Source: Labrys wisconsinensis (GTDB taxonomy: Bacteria > Pseudomonadota > Alphaproteobacteria > Rhizobiales > Labraceae). From it: a stretch of 64,000 nt of DNA. How positions within the stretch are numbered: the stretch's first letter is position 1; each line of letters opens with the position of its first letter. The stretch spans positions 294,507 through 358,506 of the forward strand of contig NZ_JAUSVX010000007.1 in assembly GCF_030814995.1 (NCBI RefSeq). Direction: 5' to 3'. The translations under genes and the position numbers were made by a program. This document shows, in pieces, positions 28,454 to 55,173 of this stretch. Below the pieces are notes generated by a model that was not told where the DNA came from, did no database searches, and saw only the letters and a list, made by a program, of their open reading frames with translations.

Positions 28454-28469
28454 GATCTTGCGGTGGCTC

Positions 28470-33354: not shown

Positions 33355-34089
33355 ATGACGCAAAACGACGCGCACTTTCCCTGGCGCCGCGTTTACAGCA
33401 CTCTCCAGACGCGCATCGTCCGTGGCGTGATGGCCCAGGGGCAGCAATTGCCGGCCGAAAACGACCTGGCCGATGAATTTCAGGTCCATCGCAACACGGT
33501 GCGGCGCGCCATCGAACGGCTGCGCGAGCAGGGCCTGATTCGCGTTCAGCACGGTGTCGGAAGCTTCGTTCGCGAACAAACCATCGTGCATTCGCTCGGG
33601 CCGCAGACGAAGCTGAGCGCCACGCTGCGGCGGATCAACCGGGTGGAGACCCGCCGGGTTCTGGACAGTGGACGCGTGCGCGCCGGCAGCGAAATCGGCC
33701 TGGCGCTGGGCGTGCCGGCCACCCGGTTCGTCCATCGGATCCGCATGCTGAACCTGATCGACGATCATGCGGCCATTCTGTCGAACATCTATTTCCCCTT
33801 GCCTCGCCTGGACGGCATCGGGGTGGCCCTGGAAGAGACCGGCTCGATCACGGAAGCGTTGCGCCGTTGCGGCGTGCCGAAGTTCACCCGGCGGGAGAGC
33901 CGCCTGTCGGCGGCGATGCTCTCGCAGCCCGATGCGGCCTTGCTGGAGCAGCCGCGCTCCGTGCCGGTTCTGTCCGTGCGGAATGTCAATGTCGATGAGG
34001 AAGGCCGGCCGGTTCAGTTCTCCCACTCTCTCGCGTCGTCCCGCTGGGTGGAGTTCGTCGTGCAGTTCGACGGCGTGCCCACCGGCTGA
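33355..34089 (+). CDS. phnF: GntR/HutC-type regulator PhnF
   Basis: 244 residues. Winged helix at about 10-75 (LPAENDLADEFQVHRNTVRR, AIERLREQGLIRVQHGVGSF) and a C-terminal UTRA effector domain (ATRFVHRIRMLNLIDDHAAI, SRWVEFVVQFDGVP). AGGAG is 8 bases before ATG 33355; a longer frame to 33325 lacks support. Location between the dioxygenase operon and phnGHIJM and the UTRA fold match PhnF, the phosphonate or phosphate-linked repressor. It faces phnM tail to tail, separated by a strong hairpin. Confidence 0.85.
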   Translation: MTQNDAHFPWRRVYSTLQTRIVRGVMAQGQQLPAENDLADEFQVHRNTVRRAIERLREQGLIRVQHGVGSFVREQTIVHSLGPQTKLSATLRRINRVETRRVLDSGRVRAGSEIGLALGVPATRFVHRIRMLNLIDDHAAILSNIYFPLPRLDGIGVALEETGSITEALRRCGVPKFTRRESRLSAAMLSQPDAALLEQPRSVPVLSVRNVNVDEEGRPVQFSHSLASSRWVEFVVQFDGVPTG

Positions 34090-35312: not shown

Positions 35313-36247
35313 TCCTTCAGCATGTCGGCAGGTTCCGGCAGGCTCGGCTCGAGGCCGCCGCCGGCCTGGCGCCTCGCGCGTCCGGCCGCCGCCTCGATCC
35401 GTGTTGCGCAGGTATCGGTGTCGGAACAGACGTAGCGGCGGACGCCGCCATCATCGACGGCCAGCTCATCGAGATAGGTGTCGGCGGATCCGCAGGCGGA
35501 GCATCGCGCCGGCCAATGCTGCACGGCGAAGGGATGGTCGTCGAAATCGAGGCTCCGCACGCTGGTATAGGGCGGGATGGCGTAGAGTCGGCGCTCGCGA
35601 CCGGCCCCGAACAGCGCCAGGGCCGGGCTGCGATGGAGCTTGGGATTGTCGAACTTCGGAATCGGCGAGGGCGAGACGATATAGCGGTCATGGACCTGGA
35701 CGGGATAGTCGTAGGCGATGGCGATGCTTCCAAAGCGTGCGATGTTCTCGTAGAGGAGCACCGACATCAGGCCGTAGTCGCCGAGGCCATGGATCAGGCG
35801 CGTGTCGCGTTCGCGCGGCACCAGGCGGCGGAACGGATCGGGTTGCGGCACCTGGAGCACCAGGATCTGATTGTCGCGAAGCGGCACCTCGGGAATGCGA
35901 TGCCGGGTCTGGATGATCGTGGCCAGGCTGGCGCGCGGCGTCGTCTGGACGCCGGCGACCTTCTGGAAGAAGGACCGGATGGTGATGGCATTGGTGGCAT
36001 CGTCGGCGCCCTGGTCGATGACCTTGAGCACGTCGCCCGGCATGATCAGGCTCGCCGTGACCTGGATGCCGCCGGTCCCCCATCCGGGCGGCACCGGCAT
36101 TTCCCGGCTCGAAAACGGCGTCTGATAGCCGGGGATCGCCACCGCCTTCAGGATGGCGCGGCGAATCGACCGCTTCGTCTGGGCATCGAGATAGGCGAAG
36201 CCATGTCCCGGACTCGCGTTGAGATCGCCGAAGGGATCGGTCGTCAC
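35309..36247 (-). CDS. phnJ: Alpha-D-ribose 1-methylphosphonate 5-phosphate C-P lyase PhnJ
   Basis: Radical-SAM enzyme that breaks the carbon-phosphorus bond, releasing the alkane and ribose cyclic phosphate. Seen: FAYLDAQTKRSIRRAILKAV at the N-terminus, MPVPPGWGTGGIQVTASLI, and near the C-terminus the cluster cysteines in CSACG and CSDTDTC (CxxC...Cx5C). Catalytic Gly region as in the family (YGLMSVLLYENIARFGSIA). 312 residues. Overlaps both phnI and phnM, so the five genes are tightly coupled. Confidence 0.96.
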   Translation of the reverse strand: MTTDPFGDLNASPGHGFAYLDAQTKRSIRRAILKAVAIPGYQTPFSSREMPVPPGWGTGGIQVTASLIMPGDVLKVIDQGADDATNAITIRSFFQKVAGVQTTPRASLATIIQTRHRIPEVPLRDNQILVLQVPQPDPFRRLVPRERDTRLIHGLGDYGLMSVLLYENIARFGSIAIAYDYPVQVHDRYIVSPSPIPKFDNPKLHRSPALALFGAGRERRLYAIPPYTSVRSLDFDDHPFAVQHWPARCSACGSADTYLDELAVDDGGVRRYVCSDTDTCATRIEAAAGRARRQAGGGLEPSLPEPADMLKE

Positions 36248-37347
36248 GAGACAGGCTCCGTGGTTTCGGGCGCCGCGCGGCGCGCCGCAAAGTCCGATCG
36301 CAGCTTGCGCATGAGCTGGAGCTCCGCCTGGAAGTCGACATAGTGCGGCAGCTTCAGGTGCTGGATCAGCCCCGAGGCATCGACGTTGTCGGAATGCGCC
36401 ATGACGAACTCCTCATCCTGCACGGGATGATTGGCGTCCTCCCCGAACTCGGCCGCGCGCAAGGTGCGGTCGACGATGGCCATGGCGATCGCCTTGCGCT
36501 CGGACTGGCCGAAGGCGAGGCCGTAGCCGCGCGTGAACTGCGGCGGCCGCGCTTCGTCGCCCGGGAAGGGGTCCAGCATCTGGCACTCCGTCGCCGCGAT
36601 CTCGCCGATCGCGACGGTGATCCCGAGCTCCGGGATCACCATGTCCACCAGCACGTCGCCGAAGCGGATTTCGGTGATGAATGGATGGGTGCGGCCATAT
36701 CCGCGCAGGCTCGAATAGGCGAGCCCGACGAGGAAGCCTTCGTCGGCGCGCGCCAGATTCTGCAGGCGCTCGCCGCGGGACGCCGGAAAGCTCACCGGCT
36801 CGCGCGTGAGGTCCCGGGGCGCCGCCTCGTCGGTGCCGACCGGCTCCATCTCCGCGATCTCGCGTTCGGGGCAGTCCCGCCGCTCGAGCGCCCCGTCCCG
36901 GCGCAGGAGGCCATCACCCTCCGGAGCGGCCGGGGGCGCCTCGCCGAGAAGATCGAAGTCGATGAGCCGGTGGGTATAGTCGTAGGTCGGTCCGAGAATC
37001 TGGCCGCCCGGCACGTCCTTGTGCGTCGTCGAGATGCGGCGGCGGATGGTCATCCCGGCCGGGTCGACCGGCAGGCTCGCGCCGAAGCGTTCGAGCGTGG
37101 TGCGCGAGGCCCTGAGCAGAAAGATCGCCTCGGCGAGATCGCCTTGCGCCTGCTTGACCGAGAGCGCGGCCAGCGTGCGGTCGTAGAGAGCACCTTCCGC
37201 CATGACCCGGTCGACGGCCAGCCCCAGCTGCTCCTGGATCTGAGCGACCGTGATTTCGGCCAGGCTCGGATCGCCGCGGCGCTTGGCGGCCAGAAGATCG
37301 TGGGACGCTGCGATGGCGGCCTCGCCGCCGCGAATGGTCGAATACAT
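36244..37347 (-). CDS. phnI: C-P lyase core subunit PhnI
   Basis: With PhnG and PhnH it makes ribose-1-phosphonate triphosphate by exchanging the adenine of MgATP for a phosphonate. Seen: N-terminal RGGEAAIAASHDLLAAKRRG, SLRGYGRTHPFITEIRFGDV, VAIGEIAATECQML, FTRGYGLAFGQSERKAIAMA and HSDNVDASGLIQHLKLPHYV. 367 residues, normal length. Overlaps phnJ by four bases (ATGA), and starts 4 bases from the phnH stop. Confidence 0.96.
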   Translation of the reverse strand: MYSTIRGGEAAIAASHDLLAAKRRGDPSLAEITVAQIQEQLGLAVDRVMAEGALYDRTLAALSVKQAQGDLAEAIFLLRASRTTLERFGASLPVDPAGMTIRRRISTTHKDVPGGQILGPTYDYTHRLIDFDLLGEAPPAAPEGDGLLRRDGALERRDCPEREIAEMEPVGTDEAAPRDLTREPVSFPASRGERLQNLARADEGFLVGLAYSSLRGYGRTHPFITEIRFGDVLVDMVIPELGITVAIGEIAATECQMLDPFPGDEARPPQFTRGYGLAFGQSERKAIAMAIVDRTLRAAEFGEDANHPVQDEEFVMAHSDNVDASGLIQHLKLPHYVDFQAELQLMRKLRSDFAARRAAPETTEPVS

Positions 37348-39921: not shown

Positions 39922-40908
39922 TCAGCATTTGCCGCGATCGGCCTCGATGCCGACGCGACGCAGGCTGCCGGCCATGGCCGTGCCTCGACCCTGCCGGGCA
40001 TCCGCGCGCTTGCCGAGGTGGGGGATCACGCTGCCGGCGACGACCACTGAAATGCCCGCAGCTTCCACCGGTCCCGGAGCGCGGCCCGAGACGGCAACCG
40101 CGACGATCGCGCCAAGGCCGGGCCCCACGGCTGCGTAGAGCGACACCCACGCCACGTCGATCCGCGAGAGCGCGAAGCTATAGGCGAGGTAGCTCGCTGC
40201 CGACGACACGAAGATCAGAAAAGCGAACGACGGCCAAAGGCCTGGGAGCGCGGGGAGGCCCGAGACATCGCCGACGAGTACCAGGCCAAGGCCGGTGAGC
40301 AAGGCCCCGCCGGTCACCTGCAGGGATGCCGCCCGATGCCACGGCAGCACGACCGTGTTCAGGTGACGGCTGATCGCAGGCCCGACGGCAGCGCACGCGA
40401 TGGCGGCTAGAACAAGGGCGAATCCGGCGGCCTGGTTGGCACCGACCGGATTGCGCTGGACTGCGAGGAGGACGAGCCCGGCAAAACTGACGGCGAGGCC
40501 GTATTTCAGGGTGCTTGGCGGCCTCTCGCCCAGCAGGATCACGCCGACGAAGGCGGTTGCGGGAGGCTGCAAGGCCCATAGCAGGACCAAGGTCACACTG
40601 TCGAGCCGGGCCGCGCCCGCCACGTTCAACAGGAGAACCACGCCGGGCTGCAGCAGGCCCAGGCCAAGGCCTTTGGCCAGGGCGCCGGGTGCAATGCTTC
40701 CTTCTTTCCACAACATGAAGCTGATCAGCCAAAGCACGATGGCGCTACAGCCGAGCTGAACGCTCAGAATGTGCAGGACGGAGATAGACTCCGTAAGGCT
40801 CTTTTGAACGAGGAAGCCAATCGGAGCGATACCAAAGGAGAACATGGCGGCAAAATGGCCGCTGGAAGCCGCCCATCCCGGCGATCGCAGCTCGAGGTGT
40901 CTTTCCAT
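39922..40908 (-). CDS. DMT superfamily (EamA) transporter, last gene of the PEP-mutase operon
   Basis: 328 residues, about ten membrane helices in two EamA repeats (about 20-150, 165-300). Seen: FGIAPIGFLVQKSLTESISV, LWALQPPATAFVGVILLGER and PSTLKYGLAVSFAGLVLLAV for repeat 1, and LAYSFALSRIDVAWVSLYAA and GPGLGAIVAVAVSGRAPG for repeat 2. The C-terminal 30 residues are polar and basic. Starts 72 bases after the methyltransferase stop with only a weak ribosome site. Position at the operon end suggests export of the product or an intermediate. Confidence 0.87.
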   Translation of the reverse strand: MERHLELRSPGWAASSGHFAAMFSFGIAPIGFLVQKSLTESISVLHILSVQLGCSAIVLWLISFMLWKEGSIAPGALAKGLGLGLLQPGVVLLLNVAGAARLDSVTLVLLWALQPPATAFVGVILLGERPPSTLKYGLAVSFAGLVLLAVQRNPVGANQAAGFALVLAAIACAAVGPAISRHLNTVVLPWHRAASLQVTGGALLTGLGLVLVGDVSGLPALPGLWPSFAFLIFVSSAASYLAYSFALSRIDVAWVSLYAAVGPGLGAIVAVAVSGRAPGPVEAAGISVVVAGSVIPHLGKRADARQGRGTAMAGSLRRVGIEADRGKC

Positions 40909-40980
40909 CGTTCAACAACTCGGGTATCGCAGGTGACGTCTTCGTGGCACGACGTAGAAGACGGCGACTGCATGGGCTCT

Positions 40981-41769
40981 CTAGAGAGGAATGAGCGTAA
41001 CCGTTACGGTCGCTTCGGATTCCAAGACGGTATCGCGTCGACCGGCATAGTGTTCATCGGCCCAGAGCTCCATTCCCCGCATCATGCGCTCGTAGACATC
41101 ATCGGGGATGTCCCAGCAGATGCTGACGATTCGCTCACGGAACATGCTCAGGAGCTCTTCGATTGTCGCTTGCACCGGCCAGCGCGCAAGGATGATGGTC
41201 GTCGTGGATGCGCGCGGCACGCCGAGATGGGCCAGAACGCCCTCGAGCCCCCCGGAAAAGCCCCGATGCAGGCGGCCGGCCCCGTATTCCAAGGCGAGCA
41301 GTTGCCATTCGATGTCGAAGGCGCGCCGCAGGATCGTGGTCGTCTCGGATTCGAAGATGTAGAGACCACCGGGTTTGACGACACGACAGATTTCGTTCAG
41401 GACGCCTCGCCAATCCGGTACGCAATGCAGCATGCCCGCGGTTATGGCCACATCATGCGAGGCATCCGGCAGGGGAAGCGCCGTGCCGTCAGCCTCGATC
41501 AGGTCCATCCGGGCGGCTGTTCCGTCGAGTTTGCGCCGCAACTGCGACAACATGCGCGGCGAAATATCGATGCCGGTGTAGGGATAGCCGCGCTTTGCGA
41601 TCGGCAGCGCAAAGCGGCCGGTGCCGATTCCCGGTTCGATGAAGCGGGCGCCCGGAGGAACACCCGCCGCGGCGAGAATCCCGCTGGCGATCGTCTCGTC
41701 GACACCGATGGGGAATCCGCGTGTCGCATCATATCGCTCCGCGATCACGTCGAAGGAAACACCGCTCAT
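40981..41769 (-). CDS. SAM-dependent methyltransferase (second of two)
   Basis: 262 residues, class I methyltransferase. Seen: FIEPGIGTGRFALPIAKRGY (motif I) and YTGIDISPRMLSQLRRKL, LIEADGTALPLPDASHDVAI, and VLNEICRVVKPGGLYIFES. The C-terminal half is a helical cap (WPVQATIEELLSMFRERIVS). ATG 41769 is preceded by GGAGG. Not closely like the neighbouring methyltransferase, so they should act on different substrates or steps. In this operon N- or O-methylation of a phosphonate intermediate is a reasonable guess. Confidence 0.87.
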   Translation of the reverse strand: MSGVSFDVIAERYDATRGFPIGVDETIASGILAAAGVPPGARFIEPGIGTGRFALPIAKRGYPYTGIDISPRMLSQLRRKLDGTAARMDLIEADGTALPLPDASHDVAITAGMLHCVPDWRGVLNEICRVVKPGGLYIFESETTTILRRAFDIEWQLLALEYGAGRLHRGFSGGLEGVLAHLGVPRASTTTIILARWPVQATIEELLSMFRERIVSICWDIPDDVYERMMRGMELWADEHYAGRRDTVLESEATVTVTLIPL

Positions 41770-41875
41770 GACTGGCACGCCTCCGCAATCGGTCTGACAA
41801 CGCCGCCGCATGGATGGTGTCGTCGGCTCGGAGGGGCCGATGCCGATCGGCGCCGGCCCACGACGGCCGGCACGC

Positions 41876-42712
41876 TCACCCCTTGCTGGCGAAGATCGCC
41901 TCCGTCTGATAGGGCAGCGAGATATGTCCCGACGCATCGCGATAGCGATCGAAGAGCGCGAGAGCCTCGTTCACCAATCCATCGTGCCCGTCCGACTTGA
42001 TCGCCTTCTGGACGACGGTCGACGAGAGCACCAGCCCGCGCATGGCATTCCGGTCGAAGGACTCACGCCATAGCCAGGATTTTCGAGCGACATCGGTGAA
42101 TTCCGGCCGCTGCAGGAGCTCGTCTTCGAGCTCGACCTCTTCATAGGTTCCGCGACTGTTCGGGCGACGGTCGCGCTCATAGTCCGCCACGCGGCTTTCG
42201 AGGAGAGCGAGATAGGCCGGCAGGAAATCGCTTTCCGCGTAGCGGAACTTGTTGTGGACGAGGGCGAGCAGGCCTTTCGGCTGCAGCACGCGCGCGACCT
42301 CGCGATAGAAGGGCGGCCGGTCGAACCGCGGTGCGGCGCCGGCCGCGCAGACAACCTGGATCGACCCGTCCTCGAAGGGCAGGTCCTCCGCAAGGCCGTC
42401 GACATAGCGGATGGAGCGCTCACCACCCCCGCCGAGCTCGACGGCCCGCCGCCGCATGTCGGCATTCGGCTCGAGCCCGACCACCTGCATGGACGGCGCC
42501 AGACGCTCCGCGAGAAGGCGCGTGAACAGCCCTGTGCCGCAGCCGATGTCGACGGCCACGTCCGCCGTGGACGTGCCGGCCGGGCGGCGCCGGTTGATCT
42601 CCGCGACCGCCTCCGCCGAATAGGCGGGACGATGGTCGTAGAACTCGGCTATCCCGTCAAACTCGGTCCACTGATTGACGTCGCTGCGGGTGCTGATGGT
42701 CGTCGCGAGCAT
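41876..42712 (-). CDS. SAM-dependent methyltransferase (first of two)
   Basis: 278 residues. Starts FDGIAEFYDHRPAYSAEAVA, then motif I VAVDIGCGTGLFTRLLAERL, GLEPNADMRRRAVELG, DGLAEDLPFEDGSIQVV, and REVARVLQPKGLLALVHNKF. The pattern is that of the methyltransferase 11 group that includes trans-aconitate-type enzymes. GGAGG precedes the ATG. Gap of 63 bases to the aminotransferase upstream and 106 to the next methyltransferase. Substrate unknown. Confidence 0.88.
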   Translation of the reverse strand: MLATTISTRSDVNQWTEFDGIAEFYDHRPAYSAEAVAEINRRRPAGTSTADVAVDIGCGTGLFTRLLAERLAPSMQVVGLEPNADMRRRAVELGGGGERSIRYVDGLAEDLPFEDGSIQVVCAAGAAPRFDRPPFYREVARVLQPKGLLALVHNKFRYAESDFLPAYLALLESRVADYERDRRPNSRGTYEEVELEDELLQRPEFTDVARKSWLWRESFDRNAMRGLVLSSTVVQKAIKSDGHDGLVNEALALFDRYRDASGHISLPYQTEAIFASKG

Positions 42713-42775
42713 TGGAGACCTCCGTCACATGAGATGGCCGGGCTGGGCCGACCGGGATCGCCCGTTCTTCGCCGG

Positions 42776-43921
42776 TCAAGTCGACGATACGGCGAGGACG
42801 TCGTGGTGATGGCCGTGGGGAAGAAGCGCGGCGACGCGCCTCAGCGCCTCGTCGAGCTCCGCACGGTCGCTCTGCTTGCCGATGGTCAGCCGGACGGCGG
42901 GGACCTCATGCGCGCTTTCGGTCGCGAAGGACCGGCTGCCCTGCACGATGACGCCCGCCTGTTCCAGCGCATGGACGAATTCGACCGAGGATCCGCGGCC
43001 GGCCGGGACGGCGAGCCAGACATGCAGGGCTTCGGGCTTCGTCATGTGCGGAAAGCCGGCCAGAGCCGCGGCGACGATGCGCTGGCGCGCCGCGGTCTCG
43101 TCCCGGATGTCGTTCAGGACCCGCTGCGCCGCACCGCTGCGGATCCATCTGGCCGCAACCGCCGCCTGAAGCGGCGCCGGGAACCAGGTCGACATCAGCC
43201 GGAGCGGCTGCACGATCTTCTCGGCCAGCCGCGCGCTGGGGGCGAGCACGTAGCTGATCCGCAGGCCGGTCGCGACGCATTTGGCCAGTCCCGCCGCATA
43301 ATAGGCGACATCCGGCGCCAGGGCCGCGATCGGCGGCGGCGCCTCGCGGGGCAGCAGGCCGTAGACGTCGTCTTCGACGATCGGGACACCGTGCCGACGC
43401 GCCACTGCGGCAAGCTCCAGCCGCCGCACCTGCCCCATGATGGCCGTGGTCGGATTCTGCAGGGTCGGCATCACGAACAGGGCGCTGGGGCGCTCCTTCC
43501 GGCAGATGCTGTCGAAATCGTCCGGAAGCGCCCCCTCGCCGTCCATGGCGACCGTTGTGGTCCGCATGCCGAGCAGCCGCGCATAGGCGTGGATGCCGTG
43601 ATAGGTCAGCCGCTCCGTCACCAGCAGGCCGTCCCGCCCGACGAGCCCGGCAAAGAGCAGGAACAGCGCGTTCTGCGTGCCATTGGTCACGATGACCCGG
43701 TTCGGGTCCGGCACCTCGCGCAACCGCATCGCCAGCCAGGCGGCGCCCGCGGTGCGATCGCTCTCGAAGCCGGCGAAGCGATGGTGCCGAAGCAGGCTAT
43801 CCGCTTCATCGTCCGCCTCGATCTCACGCAACGTGTCTTTGAGAAGATCCCCGAGATAGGGCGGCATCGGCGGCGTCGTGCGCGTGAGATCGATGACCTT
43901 GGTGATCTGGCTTCCGTCCAT
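42776..43921 (-). CDS. PLP-dependent aminotransferase related to the MocR C-terminal domain
   Basis: 381 residues, fold type I. Seen: TTPPMPPYLGDLLKDTLREI at the N-terminus, RVIVTNGTQNALFLLF, PTLQNPTTAIMG, VEDDVYGLL (D184/D185, Y187), and the Schiff-base Lys K214 in AAGLAKCVATGLRISYVLAP. This is the MocR/2-aminoadipate aminotransferase branch, but the GntR DNA-binding domain is absent, so it is an enzyme. TGGAGG precedes ATG 43921. In the operon it may transaminate a phosphono-oxo acid or aldehyde. Confidence 0.88.
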   Translation of the reverse strand: MDGSQITKVIDLTRTTPPMPPYLGDLLKDTLREIEADDEADSLLRHHRFAGFESDRTAGAAWLAMRLREVPDPNRVIVTNGTQNALFLLFAGLVGRDGLLVTERLTYHGIHAYARLLGMRTTTVAMDGEGALPDDFDSICRKERPSALFVMPTLQNPTTAIMGQVRRLELAAVARRHGVPIVEDDVYGLLPREAPPPIAALAPDVAYYAAGLAKCVATGLRISYVLAPSARLAEKIVQPLRLMSTWFPAPLQAAVAARWIRSGAAQRVLNDIRDETAARQRIVAAALAGFPHMTKPEALHVWLAVPAGRGSSVEFVHALEQAGVIVQGSRSFATESAHEVPAVRLTIGKQSDRAELDEALRRVAALLPHGHHHDVLAVSST

Positions 43922-43971
43922 GCTTGCCTCCAACTGTTCAGGGCCGCCACGGCGCGCCTTCGTGCGGCGCG

Positions 43972-44862
43972 TCACTGGCAGGCGGACCGCCCGCCATCGA
44001 CGTTGAGGATCTGTCCGGTCACGAAGCCGGCAGCCGGCGAGCCAAGGAACAGGACCGCCGCAGCCACGTCGGCCGGTTGCGCCAGACGCCCGAGCGGGAT
44101 CGGCGTGACGGCCCGCTGCAGCCAGGACGGGTCAGCGGCGAGGCTGCGGTTCTTGTTGGTCAGGACCGGACCGGGCGCGACGCCGTTGACGGTGATGCCG
44201 TAAGGGGCGAGCTCGGCGGCATGCTGCCTGACGAGCAGCGCCAGGCCGCCCTTGGCGCAGCAGAAGGCGGAATAGCCGCGCCCGCTGAGGCCGAGCATCG
44301 CCCGCAGAGACAGGAGATGGATGTGCCTGCCGCCCTGCGCCGCCGCCACCTGCCGGGCGGCGACGGCCTGCGCCAGGAACATCGCCGCCTTGAGATTGAC
44401 CTGATAAACCTGATCAAAGGCCTCCTCGGTGACCTCGAGCAGAGGCTGCTCTCGCTGCACGCCGAGACAGTTGACGAGCAGATCGATGCTCCCATGCTCG
44501 CGCACGGTTTCGTCGACGACGGCGCGGAAGCTCTCTGGGCGCCGCGCCTCGAGCACGATACCGGAAGCCGACGTCCCGGCCTGGCGGGCGAGACCGCCGG
44601 CGACCTTCATGGTCCGGGCGGCATCGTGGCCGGCGATCGCCACGGCAGCGCCATTCGCCGCCAGCGCCGAGGCGACGGCTCGCCCGATCTCCCCGTAGCC
44701 GCCCGCCACCAGCGCCACCTTGCCGGCGAGATCGAAGAGCGCCATGCGATCGAGGCCCCGCGTCAGGTCGGCGGCAAGATCCTCCCCGTCCGGACAGGTC
44801 GCCGCAACGCTCGCCGGCGCCTCGAACCGCGCCTGCGTCCCGGTCGGCGTTCCCGCGCTCAT
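43972..44862 (-). CDS. SDR family oxidoreductase of the PEP-mutase operon
   Basis: 296 residues. A 45-residue N-terminal extension (SAGTPTGTQARFEAPASVAA and on) precedes a normal SDR core: VALVAGGYGEIGRAVASALA, NCLGVQ in place of NNAG, active Ser in LLSLRAMLG, YSAFCCAKGG with Tyr and Lys, and GQILNVDGG. ATG 44862 overlaps the stop of the SelA-like gene (ATGA), which favours this start over ATG 44745. It may reduce a phosphono-aldehyde or oxo acid. The N-terminal extension and NCLG are unusual. Confidence 0.87.
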   Translation of the reverse strand: MSAGTPTGTQARFEAPASVAATCPDGEDLAADLTRGLDRMALFDLAGKVALVAGGYGEIGRAVASALAANGAAVAIAGHDAARTMKVAGGLARQAGTSASGIVLEARRPESFRAVVDETVREHGSIDLLVNCLGVQREQPLLEVTEEAFDQVYQVNLKAAMFLAQAVAARQVAAAQGGRHIHLLSLRAMLGLSGRGYSAFCCAKGGLALLVRQHAAELAPYGITVNGVAPGPVLTNKNRSLAADPSWLQRAVTPIPLGRLAQPADVAAAVLFLGSPAAGFVTGQILNVDGGRSACQ

Positions 44863-46415
44863 GCCATCCGCACCGCTCGCCATCGCGCCTCTCCGAATTG
44901 ACCGATGAAGACCGGCCCCCTGTGCTCGTCGGCCGCAGCTCCAAGACGGACCGTGCCGTGCAGCGCGCCGTCGGGCGCCGCCATGCCCTCGAAGCTGTAG
45001 TAGTGGGACATCGGCACGTGCCGGTGCACGGCCGTGAACGAGACCCGGCGGCCTGCGACATGGCCCGACACCGAGCCGGTCGAACCGGCCGCAACCTGCT
45101 CGCCACCCAACCGGTCGCCGTGCTGGGCAAGGCGCAGCCGATCGCCACGATCCCGGTGGAGGAAGGCGATCGACAGCTGCCATTCGCCGGTCAGGTCGGT
45201 TTCAGCGGCCGGCGCCTCGGCGACGGCGCGGCGACGGCCCCCCTCGCCCAAGGCGCGCGCCAGCATTCGCGCGACCAGCAGAACCTCGTCGTCCCCATGC
45301 AGATTGAAGGCATCGAGAACGACGAAGTCCTCACCGGCCCAGAAATCATGGATCAGGACCCGCGGCGAGGATGCCAGCAGAGCCCGGCGAAGATCCTCGC
45401 CGGTCCGCGACGAGGCCGCGCGGGTCCAGGACACGCGCAGCCGCGGGACCGAGACCGAGGCCCCCGCCGGGATCAGGGTGGTGGCGATGCCCGGCGCGCC
45501 CGCCAGCGCGTCGGCGAGCAGGGTCAGGCGACGGGTGCAGAGCGCTTCTTCGTGCGCGCCGGCCGCGCCGGCCATGTCTCCCAACCGAAACCAGCGTTCG
45601 ACGGCGGCGATCGCCCCGACGATCTCCTCCTTGCCGACCTTCATCGGGCGGCCGAAGGCCTGATGGGGGGCCCCGTTGAGCCAGGCCGCCCGACAGAGCG
45701 GCCCTGACCCGAGCAGGAGCCCGGTCGATTGCGGCCCGCGCAGATATTTCCCGCAGGAATAGGCGACGAGGCTGGCGCCCCGGCTGAGCCATCTGTCGGG
45801 GCGATCCGGCCGCAGGCCGGCCGCGTCGACCAGGATAGGCACGTTCGCCTTGCGGGCGAGCGGGACGATGTCGTGCAGCGGCAGCAGCGTCTGCGGCCCT
45901 GACCGTCCCAGCACGCAGATCATGACGACCTTGTCGTCGATCACGGCGGCGAGCTCGGCCACGCTGGCGACGGCGACGATTTCGGCGCCGGCCATCCGGA
46001 TGGCGCCGTCATAGTCGAAACGCTGGTCCGCCGGAATGACGACCCGGTTCGGCGCGCCCTGGACGTGCGGCAGGCGCAGCATCAGCGCGGGGTCGTTCCC
46101 GGCGATGCAGGCGGCGGTCGCGAGCGCCAGCGCCGCGGCCGAGCCCGCGGTCACGATGCCCCATTCCGCCCCGGTCAGCTCGGCGACCCGCCGGCCCGCG
46201 CCCTCGGCGAGCTCGTCGAGATCGACGAACGCGTCGGCCGCCGCCGCCATCGCCGCGAGGACGTCCGGCGCGGGACTGCTGCCGCCATGGTTGGTCCGCA
46301 CGCCGGCGCAATTGATCACCGGCTCGACGCCGAGCGCCCGATAGATCCAGCCGGGCCGGCGATCCGCCGGCGCGGGCCGCCCGGCCGGTCGAGCCCGAGG
46401 GACGAGGATATCCAT
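44859..46415 (-). CDS. SelA-like PLP enzyme fused to a C-terminal beta-rich domain
   Basis: 518 residues. Domain 1 (about 20-395) has the SelA/DgaE-like PLP fold: LGVEPVINCAGVRTNHGGSS, LAEGAGRRVAELTGAEWGIV, TAGSAAALALATAACIAGND, ILVDAAG (D197), and K223 in YSCGKYLRGPQSTGLL. Domain 2 (about 410-518) starts DLTGEWQLSIAFLHRDRGDR and ends GPVFIGQFGEARWRAVRMA, with repeated G-x-V/W strands like a lipocalin-type barrel. ATG 46415 shares a base with the preceding stop. Activity is not known; relatives are ammonia-lyases and selenocysteine synthase-like enzymes. Confidence 0.85.
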   Translation of the reverse strand: MDILVPRARPAGRPAPADRRPGWIYRALGVEPVINCAGVRTNHGGSSPAPDVLAAMAAAADAFVDLDELAEGAGRRVAELTGAEWGIVTAGSAAALALATAACIAGNDPALMLRLPHVQGAPNRVVIPADQRFDYDGAIRMAGAEIVAVASVAELAAVIDDKVVMICVLGRSGPQTLLPLHDIVPLARKANVPILVDAAGLRPDRPDRWLSRGASLVAYSCGKYLRGPQSTGLLLGSGPLCRAAWLNGAPHQAFGRPMKVGKEEIVGAIAAVERWFRLGDMAGAAGAHEEALCTRRLTLLADALAGAPGIATTLIPAGASVSVPRLRVSWTRAASSRTGEDLRRALLASSPRVLIHDFWAGEDFVVLDAFNLHGDDEVLLVARMLARALGEGGRRRAVAEAPAAETDLTGEWQLSIAFLHRDRGDRLRLAQHGDRLGGEQVAAGSTGSVSGHVAGRRVSFTAVHRHVPMSHYYSFEGMAAPDGALHGTVRLGAAADEHRGPVFIGQFGEARWRAVRMA

Positions 46416-47023
46416 CACGCCCATCCCTGGATGGCGAGGGCACCCGAGGCCAGCACGCTGAAGACCGTCACGACGCCGTACATCGCTCCGCTCAGCGCCG
46501 GCACGCGGATCGACGACACATGCAGGATCGCCAGCGCCAGGAAGACGAGGCTCAGGACGGGTGGGAACAGATCGGCCGGCAGCCAGCCGCGCACGAGGAA
46601 CAGGACGGCGAGGACGGGGACGTCGTAGGACAGGGGCACGCCGGTGAAGCGGCCGTCGCTCGACAGGCCGAAATTGCTGAAGTAGCTGAGCCGCAGAGCC
46701 CCTGCGAGCACGAGCGCCGCGCCGGCGATCGAGGCGAGGAGCCCTTGCCGGCCCTCCTGCATGACGACGATCGCCGGAAAGATCGCGCCGTAGAGAAGAT
46801 CCGCCAGGCCGTCCAGGCTCTTGCCGATCCGGGCGGTATCCGCCGCGCGGTTTCGCGTCCGCACGGCGACGACACCGTCGAGATGGTCGCAAAGCATCGC
46901 CCACAGGACCGTCGCCACGGCGAGCTCCAGGTGCCCGGACAGGGCGAAATGCAGGCCGAGCGCCGAGAACAGCAAGCCCGCCGCCGTGATGGCATTGGCT
47001 GGATCGGCGAGATAGCGGACCAT
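46415..47023 (-). CDS. CDP-alcohol phosphatidyltransferase family protein
   Basis: 202 residues, about six membrane helices. Moves a phospho (or phosphono) group from a CDP/CMP-linked donor to an alcohol. The active-site motif is present as D46xxDG50xxA53 and G67xxxD71xxxD75 (CDHLDGVVAV ... GKSLDGLADLLYG), but the segment between A53 and G67 is four residues longer than the standard spacing, and the usual Arg after Ala is Val54. GKSLDGLAD resembles PssA. GGGGAGGAG precedes the ATG. Coupled with the nucleotidyltransferase next door it would attach a phosphonate head group. Confidence 0.87.
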   Translation of the reverse strand: MVRYLADPANAITAAGLLFSALGLHFALSGHLELAVATVLWAMLCDHLDGVVAVRTRNRAADTARIGKSLDGLADLLYGAIFPAIVVMQEGRQGLLASIAGAALVLAGALRLSYFSNFGLSSDGRFTGVPLSYDVPVLAVLFLVRGWLPADLFPPVLSLVFLALAILHVSSIRVPALSGAMYGVVTVFSVLASGALAIQGWA

Positions 47024-47060
47024 TGTCTCCTCCCCCGTCGCAAGGACGTGTCACCGCGCC

Positions 47061-47840
47061 TCAAGTCGGCAGCAGCGTGCCCGACAGGAACATGGCTTCG
47101 GCGGAGCGCAGATCCTCCACGCTGTCGACCTCGTACCACTTCAAGTCGCCGCAATTCACGGCTGCGAGGGCCAGGCTGCCGCCGCCGACGAGGCCCGCAA
47201 GCACCTCTTCGACATAGGCCCTGGTCGCGCCCGCGGCGACCAGTCCGCCGAGGGCCGGGACGAGAAGCTCGCGCAGCGTGGCGCCGGTGAACCGGAACAG
47301 ATTGATGGTCTTGAACAGCTCTTCCCGCGCGAACTGCCCGCCGGTCTGTTTCAGGCGAAAGCCTTCGACATATCCCGTCGGCGACAGCGTCACGGCAGTC
47401 CCCTCCATCGCAGCGGTGAACGGCGCAACCGCGGCGACGTCGCCGGTCGGACAGGCTGCGAGGCGCTGCAGGAGGTCAGGCGCGAAGAACACGTCGCCTT
47501 CGAGCAACACGGCGTCCCCGGCGGCGGACAGCGCCTCGCGGGCGAGCCAGAGAGAATAGGCGCTGCCCGTATGCTCGAAGACCGAGGATTCGACATAGGC
47601 GACGTCCATGCCGCGGAAGCGGTGACCGCAAGACGCCCGGATGGCGTCCTTGCGGTACCCGACGACGATCGTCGTTTTCTTCACGCCCGCCTCCGCGAGA
47701 GCGCCGAGGGCATTGTGCAGGATCGGCACCCCCCCGACGGCCACGAGCGGCTTGGGGCAGTGGTTCGTCAGCGGGCGCAGGCGCGAGCCCAGCCCAGCGG
47801 CGAGAATGACTGCCTGTGTCGGCAGGCGCGGTATGGACAT
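47061..47840 (-). CDS. Sugar-nucleotidyltransferase family protein, PntC-like cytidylyltransferase domain
   Basis: 259 residues. Seen: AVILAAGLGSRLRPLTNHCP and KPLVAVGGVPILHNAL (nucleotide loop and Lys), GVKKTTIVVGYRKDAI, YVESSVFEHTGSAYSLWLAR, LLEGDVFF (the metal Asp), and MEGTAVTLSPTG. The SYSLWLAR-type segment and the EGDVFF motif match the N-terminal domain of 2-aminoethylphosphonate cytidylyltransferase PntC and LicC-type choline-P enzymes. It has no fused AEP transaminase domain. AAGGAG precedes the ATG. Predicted to make a CMP-phosphonate for the next gene. Confidence 0.88.
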   Translation of the reverse strand: MSIPRLPTQAVILAAGLGSRLRPLTNHCPKPLVAVGGVPILHNALGALAEAGVKKTTIVVGYRKDAIRASCGHRFRGMDVAYVESSVFEHTGSAYSLWLAREALSAAGDAVLLEGDVFFAPDLLQRLAACPTGDVAAVAPFTAAMEGTAVTLSPTGYVEGFRLKQTGGQFAREELFKTINLFRFTGATLRELLVPALGGLVAAGATRAYVEEVLAGLVGGGSLALAAVNCGDLKWYEVDSVEDLRSAEAMFLSGTLLPT

Positions 47841-47858
47841 GGCCGGCTCCTTCGGCGA

Positions 47859-49073
47859 TCACGCAACCGCCCGTTGTGGGCGGGCCAGGGCGTTGAGCGT
47901 TGTGACGAGGCGCGTGAGGCCGCGCTCCAGAAGGTCGGGAAGGACGCCATAGGTCAGACGCAGACCCGCCGCGTCGCCGAACGCACTGCCCGAAACCGTG
48001 GCGACGCCGGCCTCGGCGAGCAGCAGCCGGGCAACGTCGTCGGCATCCGCGACCCCGCCGTCGCGCGGCCGCGCCGCGAGAAGGTCGGAAAGATCGAGAT
48101 AGAAATAAAAGCCGCCCTGGGCCGCAACGACGGGCACCTGGACGAGTTCGGACAGGATGGCCAGACCACGCGCGCGCTGGCCGCTCAGCCGCTCCCGAAG
48201 GTCATGGGCAAAGGCATCCGGCTCGTCCTGCAGCAGGTGCGCCAGGACGGCATGCTGCGCGATCACGTTCGGATTCGAGGTGGTATGGCTCTGCACCGCC
48301 TTGACGGCCGCGATGACGTCCTTGGGCCCGGCCACGTAGCCGAGCCGCCAGCCGGTCAACGCCAGGGACTTGGAGAAGGAATTGACGATCAGCGTGCGAT
48401 GCCGCAGCTGCGGTGCCGTCCTGACGAAATTGTGGTGCTCGAGCGGCGGGTGCACGAAGCTGCCGTAGCACTCGTCGAAGATCACCCAGAGATCGTGCAG
48501 CGCAGCGAGCTCGGCGATGTCGCGGAGCAACGCCTCGCCGAACACCGCGCCGACCGGATTGCTGGGCGTGTTGACGACGATGGCGCGCGTCGCCGGCGTC
48601 ACCGCTTCCGCAAGCTTTTCGATGCTGGGCACGTAGCCGCTGGCGCGGGTTCCGACAAGGACGGGCCGTGCGCCGACGAGCCGCACCTGGGCGGGAAAGG
48701 TCGCCCAATAGGGAGCCGGGATGATCACCTCGTCGCCGGGATCGAGGAGGGCCAGCGCGATATTGAACAGGGCCTGCTTTGCGCCGGCGGTCACCGCGAC
48801 TTCATCGGCAATCCAGGCGTGGCCCGTCTCGCCGGAGAGGCGTCTCGCGATGACCGCGCGCAACGGCTCGATGCCGACGGTTTCGGTGTAGCGGTTCTCG
48901 CCACGCTCCAGGGCGGCGAGCGCCCCCGCGACGACCGCGTGAGGCGGCGCGGACGCCACTTCACCGGCCGAAAGATCGACGATCTCCTTGCCCGTCGTCG
49001 CGAATGCCTTGGCGGCGGCCCGCGCGCCTGCCGTTCCCGATGTCGCGACCAAAGTCATGCGCTGCGCTAACAT
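47859..49073 (-). CDS. Class I aminotransferase, aspartate-aminotransferase type
   Basis: 404 residues. Seen: VDLSAGEVASAPPHAVVAGA, RYTETVGIEPLRAVIARRLS, VAVTAGAKQALFNIAL, NTPSNPVGAVF, FDECYGSFV (D200, Y203) and K235 in VNSFSKSLALTGWRLGYVAG. The group (class I gamma, as in rhizobial and Thermus enzymes) uses aspartate, glutamate or prephenate-type substrates. The gene follows pepM by 64 bases. Phosphonopyruvate is an oxaloacetate analogue, and aspartate aminotransferases can form phosphonoalanine from it, so this is the likely second step. GAGAAG precedes ATG 49073. Confidence 0.9.
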   Translation of the reverse strand: MLAQRMTLVATSGTAGARAAAKAFATTGKEIVDLSAGEVASAPPHAVVAGALAALERGENRYTETVGIEPLRAVIARRLSGETGHAWIADEVAVTAGAKQALFNIALALLDPGDEVIIPAPYWATFPAQVRLVGARPVLVGTRASGYVPSIEKLAEAVTPATRAIVVNTPSNPVGAVFGEALLRDIAELAALHDLWVIFDECYGSFVHPPLEHHNFVRTAPQLRHRTLIVNSFSKSLALTGWRLGYVAGPKDVIAAVKAVQSHTTSNPNVIAQHAVLAHLLQDEPDAFAHDLRERLSGQRARGLAILSELVQVPVVAAQGGFYFYLDLSDLLAARPRDGGVADADDVARLLLAEAGVATVSGSAFGDAAGLRLTYGVLPDLLERGLTRLVTTLNALARPQRAVA

Positions 49074-49137
49074 GGGCGCTTCTCTCACCTTCGAATGTTG
49101 GGTGGATTTCAGGACTTGCGGCGCCGTCCTGCCGGCG

Positions 49138-50067
49138 TCACGCACCGCCGAGGCCTGACGAGAGGTAGCGCTTCTCGGCGGCTGCGAGCTCGTCATAGCG
49201 CAGAAGGCCGAAGACCTCGTCGAGGCTGGCGATGTCGCCCTCGATACCGGCGATGCCCTCCTCGGACAGGATCCGTCCGCAGACCTGACGCATGGCCGCA
49301 ACGGCCGCACGCATGGCGTGATTGGCCCAGATGACCGTCGAGATCCCGGCGGTCCGATAGACCGAAACCGGCGTCCGGTAATATTTGGTTGGAACGATGA
49401 TCAATGGCAGCCGGTTCTGCCACAGTTGCGCGAAGGCCAGGATCTCATCGGCCGTGCTCAACCGTGAGTGGATCAGGATGGCGTCGGCCCCCGACTCGGC
49501 ATAGGCATGCGCCCGTTTCAGCGCCTCCTCCTGACCATGGCCGGCAATCAGGGCCTCGACGCGCGCCACCAGAACGAAGTCGCTGTCGCCGACCGTATCC
49601 TTCACCGCACGCAGACGCCCGCAGAACTCCCCGATCTCGGCCAGGGGATGATGGTCGCCGACGAAGGAATTCATCTTCGGAAACCATTTATCTTCCAAAC
49701 AGATCCCTGCTGCGCCCCGCTGGCACATCTTGGCAGCGACGAGCCGGGCGTTGTTGAAGTTGCCGAACCCGGAATCCCCGTCGACGAGGATCGGCACCTG
49801 CACCGTCTCGGCCATGCGCTCGACCGCGTCGACCATTTCGCTCCAGGATGCCTCGTTGGCATCGCGATAGCCGAGGCTCGATGCGATCGACAAGCCGGAG
49901 GCCCACAGGCCCCGAAAACCACAGCGCTCGGCTATCGTAGCGGAAAGCGCGTCATGAGCTTCCATCAGAAATGACAGCTCGTCGGACAAGACAAGCTTGC
50001 GAAGGCTCGAGGCCCTGTCGGTTCGGGCTCGAGCGTCGACGCCGGTGGGAAACCCTGGAGCGTACAT
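49138..50067 (-). CDS. pepM: Phosphoenolpyruvate phosphomutase
   Basis: 309 residues. Rearranges PEP to phosphonopyruvate, the entry reaction of phosphonate biosynthesis. The decisive motif EDK-x5-NS is present (E125 D126 K127 ... N133 S134 in LEDKWFPKMNSF), which separates mutase from isocitrate-lyase relatives. Other family blocks: MEAHDALSATIAERCGFRGL, WASGLSIASSLGYRDANEAS, VDGDSGFGNFNNARL (D96, D98), VARVEALIAGHG and IVPTKYYRTPVSV. First gene of the ten-gene operon ending at 39922. Nearest regulators are the two GntR genes to its right. Confidence 0.96.
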   Translation of the reverse strand: MYAPGFPTGVDARARTDRASSLRKLVLSDELSFLMEAHDALSATIAERCGFRGLWASGLSIASSLGYRDANEASWSEMVDAVERMAETVQVPILVDGDSGFGNFNNARLVAAKMCQRGAAGICLEDKWFPKMNSFVGDHHPLAEIGEFCGRLRAVKDTVGDSDFVLVARVEALIAGHGQEEALKRAHAYAESGADAILIHSRLSTADEILAFAQLWQNRLPLIIVPTKYYRTPVSVYRTAGISTVIWANHAMRAAVAAMRQVCGRILSEEGIAGIEGDIASLDEVFGLLRYDELAAAEKRYLSSGLGGA

Positions 50068-50397: not shown

Positions 50398-51081
50398 GTG
50401 GACAATCATCTTCTGCGTGATCCTGGCAAGAGCGATCATGTCTACAGTGCGCTCAAGCGGCTCGTGACGAACGGTCGGTTCCGACCTGGCGAAAAGCTCG
50501 GCATTCGGAAGCTTGCGGATGATCTGGGCGTCAGCACGACGCCGGTTCGGGAAGGTTTGATCAGGCTTGCCTTGGAGGAATTCATCCTTACGTTTCCAAG
50601 CGAAGGATTTTTCACCAAGCCGTTTGATGTCGAAGAGGCCAAGGCCGATCTTGAGCTGGTGTTCATGATCGAGAAATACGGTATCGAAGCAAACATTGCT
50701 CATTTTACGCTTGATGGCCTTCGCAATCCTTTGAATGAAATTTCAGGCGATCCCGGCAACGACATCTCGAAACTGGTTCTCTTTCTCGAGCAGCTGACGA
50801 GGCGTTTGAGCGGCCTTTCCGGCAATGAAAAGGCTACGCGCGTTGCCGACCGAACCAACGAGAGGCTCCACTACATCAGGCTCGTCGAACTGGAGCGCCC
50901 CGCCAATAGGCATGAGATTCTTACTTCCACGGGACAACTGATCGAGCAGCTGCTGAAGCGATGCAGCGATGAAGCGGTAGCGTTGCTTCATCATGCGCTG
51001 GAGCGGCAGGTGCGTTGCCTGCCGGAGATCGTGAACGAGGCGAACGGCCGGGCTCTCAAGGCATCGCCGCAGGTGGCCTAG
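50398..51081 (+). CDS. GntR regulator (FCD-like), divergent from pepM
   Basis: 227 residues, GTG start with GGAG upstream. Winged helix at about 14-75 (VYSALKRLVTNGRFRPGEKL, GIRKLADDLGVSTTPVREGL) and a helical C-terminal part with RVADRTNERLHYIRLVELER, which fits the FCD domain although the metal His residues are few. Codon usage is clearly less GC-rich than in the pepM operon, suggesting a separate origin. A likely controller of pepM through the palindrome at 50167. Ligand unknown. Confidence 0.87.
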   Translation: MDNHLLRDPGKSDHVYSALKRLVTNGRFRPGEKLGIRKLADDLGVSTTPVREGLIRLALEEFILTFPSEGFFTKPFDVEEAKADLELVFMIEKYGIEANIAHFTLDGLRNPLNEISGDPGNDISKLVLFLEQLTRRLSGLSGNEKATRVADRTNERLHYIRLVELERPANRHEILTSTGQLIEQLLKRCSDEAVALLHHALERQVRCLPEIVNEANGRALKASPQVA

Positions 51082-52010: not shown

Positions 52011-52038
52011 AAGTATCACCGCATGAAGGGAGTTGCCC

Positions 52039-53130: not shown

Positions 53131-53145
53131 CGATGGGGAGTGACG

Positions 53146-54177: not shown

Positions 54178-54280
54178 AGTATGATCGCTTCAAGTTGAAT
54201 CGATCACACTCTCTATCTCTTTGTTTTTACGCATTGTCTTAACGCGAACCGAGTGCTGGTTCGCTGAAAAATGCTCTGGC
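54176..54280. repeat. Palindromic intergenic element of Hyphomicrobiales type
   Basis: AGAGTATGATCG (54176-54187) pairs with CGATCACACTCT (54201-54212), 11 of 12 bases. It is followed by CTATCTCTTTGTTTTTACGC, then AACGCGAACC and AAAATGCTCT. From memory this whole arrangement resembles an extragenic repeat common in rhizobial and related genomes. It sits inside the importer operon. Confidence 0.65.
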
Positions 54281-55172: not shown

Positions 55173-55173
55173 C

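What the first reader, a model, noticed from the sequence alone, without database searches (positions are those of the whole stretch)
39922..50067. Ten-gene PEP-mutase operon predicted to make a CMP-activated phosphonate, probably a phosphonolipid, without phosphonopyruvate decarboxylase
pepM carries the diagnostic EDK-x5-NS motif. It is followed on the same strand, with gaps of -4 to 106 bases, by an aspartate-type aminotransferase, a PntC-like nucleotidyltransferase, a CDP-alcohol phosphotransferase, a SelA-like PLP enzyme, an SDR, a MocR-like aminotransferase, two methyltransferases and an exporter. PEP mutase equilibrium favours PEP, so a driving step is required. The usual one, a TPP-dependent decarboxylase, is missing from the window, while an oxaloacetate-type aminotransferase sits next to pepM. 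I infer phosphonopyruvate to phosphonoalanine, then CMP activation and transfer to an alcohol. The combination with a SelA-like enzyme and two methyltransferases is not one I know.
Basis: partly seen in the sequence, partly recalled or inferred. Interest (0 to 1): 0.93.

Follow-up and report, generated by a model that had tools for sequence, protein, structure and literature searches.

The report
Paired phosphonate maker and recycler genes
A bacterial operon is predicted to build and export a small carbon-phosphorus compound by an amino-acid route, and it sits beside genes of the known machinery that breaks such compounds for phosphate, a pairing that recurs on plasmids of root-nodule bacteria and would amount to an opine-like private phosphorus supply.

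The parts
49138..50067 (-). pepM, phosphoenolpyruvate mutase, EDKWFPKMNS
   Evidence: TIGR02320 344.6 bits over cut-off 319.55; best solved relative PEP mutase 1m1b, E 2.7e-94
47859..49073 (-). aspartate-type aminotransferase, predicted phosphonopyruvate transaminase
   Evidence: PF00155; nearest solved chains are aspartate aminotransferases; own-genome paralogues at E up to 1e-30 are at most 37% identical
47061..47840 (-). PntC/LicC-like cytidylyltransferase
46415..47023 (-). CDP-alcohol phosphotransferase, 202 aa, signature DxxDGxxA(x13)GxxxDxxxD
   Evidence: PF01066 31.8 bits, cut-off 22; these signature residues invariant in 23 of 23 aligned rows
44859..46418 (-). DgaE/SelA-like PLP enzyme with an extra C-terminal stretch
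   Evidence: NF047797 144.4 bits, below its cut-off of 600; solved relatives 8t7j, 7lc0
43972..44862 (-). SDR oxidoreductase (start at 44862 or 44745)
   Evidence: PF13561
42776..43975 (-). MocR-like fold-type I aminotransferase without HTH (start at 43975 or 43921)
   Evidence: PF00155; NF052286 334.8 bits, under its cut-off of 480, over the aminotransferase part only
41876..42712 (-). SAM methyltransferase 1
   Evidence: PF08241
40981..41769 (-). SAM methyltransferase 2 (start at 41769 or upstream)
   Evidence: PF08241
39922..40908 (-). EamA-family exporter
   Evidence: PF00892 58.3 bits
38810..39889 (+). FAD-dependent oxidoreductase (DAO); in four relatives it follows the SDR in the biosynthetic operon
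   Evidence: PF01266 158 bits; L032, L045, L056, L061
37953..38426 (-). phnG, C-P lyase subunit
   Evidence: PF06754 145.3 bits
37351..37953 (-). phnH
   Evidence: TIGR03292 172.7 bits over cut-off 91.5
36244..37347 (-). phnI
   Evidence: PF05861 472.7 bits
35309..36247 (-). phnJ, C-P bond cleaving subunit
   Evidence: PF06007 434.9 bits; one of five copies in the genome
34134..35312 (-). phnM
   Evidence: NF011984 423.5 bits over cut-off 260
33325..34089 (+). phnF, GntR-type regulator of C-P lyase genes
   Evidence: TIGR02325 180.6 bits over cut-off 156.8
32019..33005 (-). TauD-family dioxygenase between importer and phnF
   Evidence: PF02668 157.7 bits
30455..31963 (-). family 5 substrate-binding protein of a peptide/opine-type importer
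   Evidence: PF00496 266.6 bits; solved relatives YliB 134.6, AgaA 131.5, AccA 79.9 bits
28470..30367 (-). two permeases of the importer (one at 29312-30367; the second within ORF 28470-29795, start not settled)
   Evidence: PF00528 for the first; the second only by my reading of the ORF
26543..28498 (-). double ATPase of the importer
   Evidence: two ABC_tran stretches plus oligo_HPY
50398..51081 (+). GntR regulator divergent from pepM
   Evidence: PF00392; relatives next to pepM in six loci

Best explanation
The operon is predicted to turn PEP into phosphonopyruvate (PepM), likely pull it forward as phosphonoalanine (aspartate-type aminotransferase), activate that with CMP (PntC-like enzyme) and join it to a soluble alcohol (CDP-alcohol phosphotransferase), and it likely works together with the adjacent C-P lyase genes and peptide-type importer as a make-and-retrieve system for a private phosphonate. 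The SelA-like enzyme, SDR, second aminotransferase, FAD oxidoreductase and two methyltransferases would tailor the phosphonate or its alcohol partner (order unknown, inferred); the EamA protein would export it; the family 5 importer would bring it back; PhnGHIJ and PhnM, with PhnK supplied by another copy in the genome, would release phosphate. Shown by sequence: enzyme families, absence of Ppd over cut-off, conserved gene order, recurrent C-P lyase neighbourhood. Inferred: every substrate, the flow of steps, and retrieval of the same compound.
For: PEP mutase over cut-off. No Ppd over cut-off in the genome; of the 28 genomes behind the 29 aminotransferase-type loci, 24 have none either. Aminotransferase in 29 and Ppd in 10 of 60 loci, never both. 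PepM-driven transamination is proven chemistry for PnaA (PMC11867202, section 7 read). PntC is the best structural match of the cytidylyltransferase model. phnJ on the same contig within 21 kb of pepM in 8 of 48 genomes; 0.39 expected for 22 kb either side, Poisson P about 1e-8. The neighbouring phnJ genes fall in several groups of a tree. The pairing also occurs on plasmids of R. gallicum (9-13 kb from nifHDKE), S. mexicanum and S. chiapasense (about 10 kb from nodD2), S. fredii and S. meliloti M270. For R. gallicum and R. leguminosarum Vaf10 the importer's binding protein is AccA-like (304.8 and 307.4 bits against 130.8 and 113.1 for the next kind). On the plasmids of R. gallicum, S. meliloti M270 and S. 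fredii a phosphatase-superfamily gene lies between importer and phnF (PF01663 phosphodiesterase for the two scanned), which suits a phosphonate ester. Rhizobium sp. 007 adds an octopine-dehydrogenase-family gene; another cluster lies on a Ti plasmid.
Against: No product, expression or enzyme activity is known. The window's binding protein is only 28-35% identical, over 183-418 residues, to those of five sister plasmids, and is closer to YliB and AgaA than to AccA. The two phosphodiesterases used as queries have no homologue in the window. The window's C-P lyase set lacks phnK and phnL. The genome has five phnJ copies, so one near pepM is less surprising here than elsewhere. In 40 of the 48 genomes no phnJ was seen within 21 kb of pepM, partly because contigs end. 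The distance limit was set after seeing the data, and the genomes are related. In four genomes with the aminotransferase-type locus a Ppd over cut-off lies on another contig (G075, G077, G082, G101). 21 of 60 loci show neither aminotransferase nor Ppd. No regulatory word shared by the pepM and phnG upstream regions was found.
Confidence: 0.5

Rival explanations
1. Phosphonolipid or surface decoration: CMP-phosphonoalanine is transferred to diacylglycerol or a glycan; the C-P lyase is ordinary phosphorus scavenging that lies nearby by chance.
For: The CDP-alcohol enzyme scores best against phosphatidylserine and archaetidylserine synthases (56 and 55 bits, both under cut-off), and its spacing equals that of Legionella phosphatidylcholine synthases (DGX2ARX8PX3GX3DX3D, passage of PMC7867332). 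Rice et al. write that most bacterial phosphonate capacity tailors cell surfaces (PMC6697681, abstract and first part of the text read).
Against: EamA exporter and several tailoring enzymes in the operon; repeated C-P lyase neighbourhood; AccA-type importers in sister clusters. A passage of PMC4634129 links six-helix members of the family to soluble acceptors; the window protein has only 202 residues, but I did not settle its helix number.
Confidence: 0.25
2. Secreted antimetabolite: the operon makes a diffusible phosphonate antibiotic or herbicide-like compound, and the C-P lyase serves self-protection or plain scavenging.
For: Many tailoring genes and an exporter; known PepM clusters make bioactive compounds (abstract of PMC11867202); tailoring genes vary from strain to strain.
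Against: None of the window genes scanned looks like a resistance gene or spare target, though the other window genes were not scanned; an importer beside a producer would bring a poison back in; some sister clusters carry complete C-P lyase operons.
Confidence: 0.18
3. The C-P lyase genes take part in making the product rather than in breaking it.
For: The abstract of Li and Horsman 2022, as I recall it, mentions apparent biosynthetic use of a C-P lyase operon; that paper is not held.
Against: Some linked sets are complete and carry phnF and phnM and an importer, as catabolic operons do; in several cases they face the opposite way (L084, L101, L102).
Confidence: 0.05
4. Phosphonopyruvate is decarboxylated by the split sulfopyruvate-decarboxylase-like pair on contig C5, and the aminotransferases act later, as in aminoethylphosphonate pathways.
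For: The pair scores 67.6 and 116.5 bits against the Ppd model.
Against: It scores higher against sulfopyruvate decarboxylase alpha and beta (112.4, 141.4), all under cut-off; it lies on another contig next to an aldehyde dehydrogenase-like gene and an SDR; weak Ppd hits also ring in 13 of 14 control genomes.
Confidence: 0.04

Closest known systems
Phosphonoalamide cluster (PnaD PEP mutase with PnaA phosphonopyruvate transaminase, Streptomyces)
   Same: PEP mutase driven by an aspartate-family aminotransferase instead of a decarboxylase (PMC11867202)
   Different: pna uses ATP-grasp ligases to make peptides; here a cytidylyltransferase and a CDP-alcohol phosphotransferase follow. The PnaA sequence was not at hand for comparison
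Phosphonyl tailoring (pnt) clusters with PntC, Treponema denticola
   Same: cytidylyltransferase of the same fold, best structural match
   Different: the characterised pnt clusters make aminoethylphosphonate with Ppd and a transaminase, fused to PntC in T. denticola (PMC6697681, passages); here Ppd is absent and the enzyme stands alone
Agrocinopine uptake and use (AccA, AccF) of Agrobacterium
   Same: in sister plasmids the binding protein is AccA-like and a phosphodiesterase follows; AccA and AccF roles from the abstract of PMC7356202
   Different: agrocinopines are phosphodiesters produced by infected plants; here the bacterium carries the synthesis genes and the product would be a phosphonate
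Rhizopine system (mos/moc) of rhizobia (recalled)
   Same: synthesis and use genes carried together, often on symbiosis plasmids
   Different: rhizopines are aminocyclitols used for carbon and nitrogen; no sequence kinship was tested

Membership tests
PEP mutase (TIGR02320) | family score over curated cut-off and EDKxxxxxNS motif | tested here: met
   344.6 over 319.55 bits; EDKWFPKMNS
PnaA-type phosphonopyruvate transaminase | aspartate aminotransferase family member encoded next to pepM in place of Ppd | tested here: met
   GAKQ-type and N[TS]PxNP motifs in 30 of 30 extracted relatives, GWRxG and DExY in 28 of 30 (roles of these residues recalled)
PnaA-type phosphonopyruvate transaminase | converts phosphonopyruvate and aspartate to phosphonoalanine and oxaloacetate | not testable with these tools
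   needs an enzyme assay
PntC phosphonate cytidylyltransferase | PntC/LicC fold with conserved nucleotide and Mg residues | tested here: met
PntC phosphonate cytidylyltransferase | transfers CMP to a phosphonate | not testable with these tools
   needs an enzyme assay
CDP-alcohol phosphotransferase | Pfam PF01066 over gathering score | tested here: met
   31.8 over 22 bits
CDP-alcohol phosphotransferase | eight signature residues DxxDGxxAR..GxxxDxxxD | tested here: inconclusive
   seven are invariant in 23 of 23 rows; the Arg of AR varies (V in the window) and the gap is longer than in the classical motif
Phosphonopyruvate decarboxylase route | Ppd gene over cut-off in the genome | tested here: not met
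   0 of 1 genome (own) over cut-off
C-P lyase operon | phnG, phnH, phnI, phnJ present | tested here: met
C-P lyase operon | phnK and phnL in the same operon | tested here: not met
   no PhnL hit and only 27-34% hits of PhnK to other ATPases in the window; phnK and phnL are in the copies on C8, C14 and C15
Opine or rhizopine system | synthesis and use genes on the same replicon | tested here: met
   window, if the C-P lyase is the use set; plasmids
Opine or rhizopine system | importer matched to the product | tested here: inconclusive
   importer of a fitting family adjacent, ligand unknown
Opine or rhizopine system | made inside plant tissue | not tested
   no expression data for the window; its host and habitat are unknown

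The most novel reading that the evidence does not exclude
These clusters are phosphonate opines: plasmid-borne, strain-variable cassettes by which rhizobia and their relatives turn PEP and scarce phosphorus into a phosphonoalanine ester that only kin with the matching importer and C-P lyase can reclaim, the first known private currency of phosphorus in the nodule and root zone.
Probability: 0.3. Interest if true: 0.93.

Novelty: new variant of a known kind. Interest (0 to 1): 0.74.

Why it matters
A published survey found that under 1% of genomes both make and eat phosphonates and wrote of a general mutual exclusivity, the exceptions being mostly non-marine (PMC8931226, section 6 read). Here 45 of 47 related pepM genomes carry phnJ, and in 8 of 48 (the window's own included) the two sets are neighbours. 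If the pair works on one compound, it explains why a cell would pay for a carbon-phosphorus bond: to hold phosphorus in a form few others can use. That is directly testable in lab strains of nodule bacteria. It would also join two known enzyme types, a PnaA-like transaminase and a PntC-like cytidylyltransferase, into one route; I saw no described product of such a route in the papers I looked at.

Tried and rejected
Ppd elsewhere in the genome: best hits are a split sulfopyruvate-decarboxylase-like pair on C5, under every cut-off; rejected as the partner enzyme. The second PepM-family gene on C13 is a phosphonopyruvate hydrolase (410 over 374.4 bits), not a second mutase; three weaker PepM-family hits were not studied. 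Pho-box search: 2 hits with 2.46 expected; spaced repeats before pepM are not conserved (5 of 58 upstream regions, reached in 15 of 200 shuffle rounds). No 10-base word is shared by the pepM and phnG upstream regions, and neither holds a palindrome by my rule. 'One C-P lyase travelled with pepM' is not a general account: in the phnJ tree (34 rows) the neighbours fall in five groups (S. mexicanum, S. chiapasense and S. meliloti 4H41 together; Methylosinus with another genome's unlinked copy; the window with the own C3 copy; Sinorhizobium 6-70 with PL25a and own C15, weakly supported; the Bradyrhizobium and M. escarrei copies with own C14). The backbone between most of these is unresolved, and the tool warns that the window and C3 rows are long branches that may meet falsely. 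Plasmid origin of the window contig: no RepC in the genome, so not supported. My script patterns for the PLP lysine (7 of 30) and Arg386 (25 of 30) of the aminotransferase, and for the C-terminal Asp of the cytidylyltransferase (21 of 40), were written too narrowly and are not used. My hydropathy count of membrane helices over-counts by overlap and is not used.

Print: what I saw of most papers is listings. One search listed 4 papers with 'phosphonate' and 'rhizopine', none on this subject by title; one search found 0 with 'phosphoenolpyruvate mutase' and 'symbiotic plasmid'; others (7 listed; 12 of 14 listed; 12 of 550 listed) showed none by title. Li and Horsman 2022 is not held and may list such clusters among its phosphonoalanine group (abstract recalled), so I do not claim that the clusters are unreported.

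Rows dropped before counts: whole-genome phnJ and Ppd counts used 50 of the 60 loci (47 genomes); left out were L062, L063, L064, L066, L067, L068, L070, L071, L073, L074. The plasmid phnJ listing showed 60 of 198 records, so co-location on plasmids is a lower bound. The Ppd count of whole genomes used E up to 1e-50, so pieces are missed.
Full report
WHAT IS THERE. Family scans agree with its naming. pepM scores 344.6 bits against the curated PEP mutase model (cut-off 319.55), carries EDKWFPKMNS and aligns nearly end to end with a solved PEP mutase, 1m1b. The genome is 8.93 Mb in 55 contigs and unnamed. At E up to 1e-40 pepM is in none of the four other same-genus genomes searched and in 1 of 55 genomes of the same order, so the cluster is probably acquired (inference).

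NO DECARBOXYLASE. The Ppd model (TIGR03297) finds nothing over its cut-off in the genome; weak matches ring in 13 of 14 control genomes as well. The best match is split over two adjacent genes on contig C5 that score higher as sulfopyruvate decarboxylase alpha and beta, again under cut-off. A second PepM-family gene on C13 is a phosphonopyruvate hydrolase over its cut-off. As positive control, the Ppd gene near pepM in locus L017 scores 333.7 bits (cut-off 312.5).

THE CORE IS CONSERVED. A scan of genome contigs (84,980 species) gave 60 pepM loci, mostly Bradyrhizobium, Mesorhizobium, Rhizobium and Sinorhizobium. By tblastn with identity limits, 29 of 60 carry this aminotransferase, 38 the cytidylyltransferase, 28 the CDP-alcohol enzyme, 11 the SelA-like gene, 10 Ppd; aminotransferase and Ppd never share a locus, and 21 of 60 show neither, 12 of these being stretches under 19.5 kb. 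The order pepM-aminotransferase-cytidylyltransferase-CDP-alcohol enzyme on one strand is found in 22 of 60. Of the 28 genomes behind the 29 aminotransferase loci, four hold a Ppd over cut-off on another contig (G075, G077, G082, G101) and 24 hold none. Behind the core the tailoring genes vary. SelA-like plus SDR recur in L032, L045, L050, L056 and L061, and the FAD oxidoreductase follows in four of these. Steroidobacter gossypii (L056; a gammaproteobacterium, recalled) has nearly the whole set: pepM 74%, aminotransferase 58%, cytidylyltransferase 53%, CDP-alcohol enzyme 52%, SelA-like 51%, SDR 55%, oxidoreductase 35%, MocR-like 37%, methyltransferase 40%.

WHAT LIES NEXT DOOR. Directly beyond the exporter are an FAD oxidoreductase, phnG, phnH, phnI, phnJ, phnM, phnF, a TauD dioxygenase and an importer of the peptide/opine family. 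phnK and phnL are missing here; they occur in the copies on C8, C14 and C15. The genome has five phnJ genes; 47 related genomes have 0 to 3 each.

IS THE PAIRING CHANCE? For 48 genomes (47 reached through 50 of the 60 loci, plus the window's own) I compared phnJ and pepM places. phnJ lies on the same contig within 21 kb in eight: G000, G061, G070, G078, G091, G093, G101, G103 (contigs matched to those by length). Expected from copy number and genome size for 22 kb either side: 0.39; Poisson P about 1e-8. Caveats: the limit was set after looking, genomes are related, contig ends hide cases. In a tree of 34 phnJ rows the neighbouring genes fall in five groups, one of them set apart with full support and one (Methylosinus) grouped with an unlinked copy of another genome; the backbone is mostly unresolved and some rows are long-branched. 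So the pairing probably arose more than once. In Sinorhizobium sp. 6-70 and S. meliloti 4H41 the neighbouring copy lies outside the well supported 17-row group that holds their other copy.

PLASMIDS. pepM relatives at 60% identity or more lie on 56 PLSDB plasmids. phnJ neighbours seen: S. mexicanum 8 kb, S. chiapasense 10 kb, R. gallicum and S. meliloti M270 15 kb, S. fredii 21 kb, M. japonicum pMLa 39 kb, Mesorhizobium AR02 43 kb (60 of 198 phnJ records seen, so at least 7 of 56). R. gallicum's cluster is 9-13 kb from nifHDKE, those of S. mexicanum and S. chiapasense about 10 kb from nodD2. The importer's binding protein is AccA-like: for R. gallicum 304.8 bits to the agrocinopine-binding protein and 130.8 to the next kind, for R. 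leguminosarum Vaf10 307.4 and 113.1. Of the seven plasmids whose binding protein is at least 82% identical to that of R. gallicum, five carry pepM of this kind; two (S. chiapasense NZ_CP133150, Microvirga NZ_CP069355) are not among the 56, though the first is probably from the same strain as the S. chiapasense pepM plasmid. A type I phosphodiesterase stands between importer and phnF in R. gallicum and S. meliloti M270. Rhizobium sp. 007 adds an octopine-dehydrogenase-family gene (PF02317 77.6 bits). The Ti plasmid pTi_CFBP1905 carries a pepM-aminotransferase-cytidylyltransferase cluster followed by a family 5 importer, NikA-like rather than AccA-like.

READING. I commit to a make-and-retrieve, opine-like system: the operon makes and exports a phosphonate ester, and the neighbouring set takes it back for phosphorus. 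The maker half is well grounded; the retrieval half rests on repeated neighbourhood and on transporter and phosphodiesterase families in relatives, less on the window itself, whose binding protein is a distant member. The claim that makers rarely eat phosphonates comes from PMC8931226 (section 6 read). Bean bacteroids are reported as phosphate-limited, with putative phosphonate-use genes induced (PMC6421345, passage seen), which makes such a supply plausible in nodules; whether the window's bacterium meets plants is unknown.

VERDICT. Observation confirmed. Interpretation partly supported: phosphonoalanine and CMP activation likely, phosphonolipid not supported. Novelty: each enzyme type is known; the joined route and above all its pairing with C-P lyase and opine-type importers make a new variant.

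Noticed in passing
G000 contigs C3, C7, C8, C14, C15: Five phnJ genes in one genome, against 0 to 3 in 47 related genomes; two of the five sets (C3 and the window's) show no phnK or phnL in the stretches fetched.
   Followed up: partly
L032, L033, L035-L037, L040-L045, L047, L053, L055, L057, L059, L065, L069-L071, L073, L074, L076: pepM of 23 loci, all Bradyrhizobium, reads EDSCFPKxNS or close instead of EDKxFPKxNS; motif-filtered surveys such as that of PMC6697681 would miss them. Some copies (L069, L070, L073, L074) look broken.
   Followed up: no
L040 19494-20369, L075 15189-16052, L031 near 20039: A phosphonopyruvate-hydrolase-like gene (EDKTFPKVTS in L040 and L075) lies near pepM in three loci, which would fit use of phosphonoalanine.
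   Followed up: no
L133 20214-24074 and the same genes in L082: The Ti and pAt plasmid clusters carry a ParB-domain protein, an ornithine-cyclodeaminase relative, an alanine-racemase relative and a cysteine-synthase relative in a row, which recalls the SbnI/SbnB/SbnA set for 2,3-diaminopropionate (names recalled).
   Followed up: no
L110 17767-21871, L108 18543, L112 10742, L134 14236: Asparagine-synthase-like genes lie near the CDP-alcohol enzyme in several rhizobial clusters, suggesting amide variants of the product.
   Followed up: no
window 52033-63698: On the far side of pepM: an ABC transporter with a family 8 binding protein, an MFS transporter, another aminotransferase and a DAO-GcvT fusion of the dimethylglycine dehydrogenase kind, perhaps N-demethylating.
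   Followed up: no
window 50078-50106: Three CCGTCA words at 12- and 11-base spacing just before pepM resemble a Pho box, but hits are at chance level and not conserved.
   Followed up: yes
L032-L041 and other Bradyrhizobium loci: Many Bradyrhizobium pepM loci share upstream neighbours (clusters c6, c7, c9), by my reading a cytochrome c peroxidase-like gene, a LuxR-type regulator and an outer-membrane protein.
   Followed up: no
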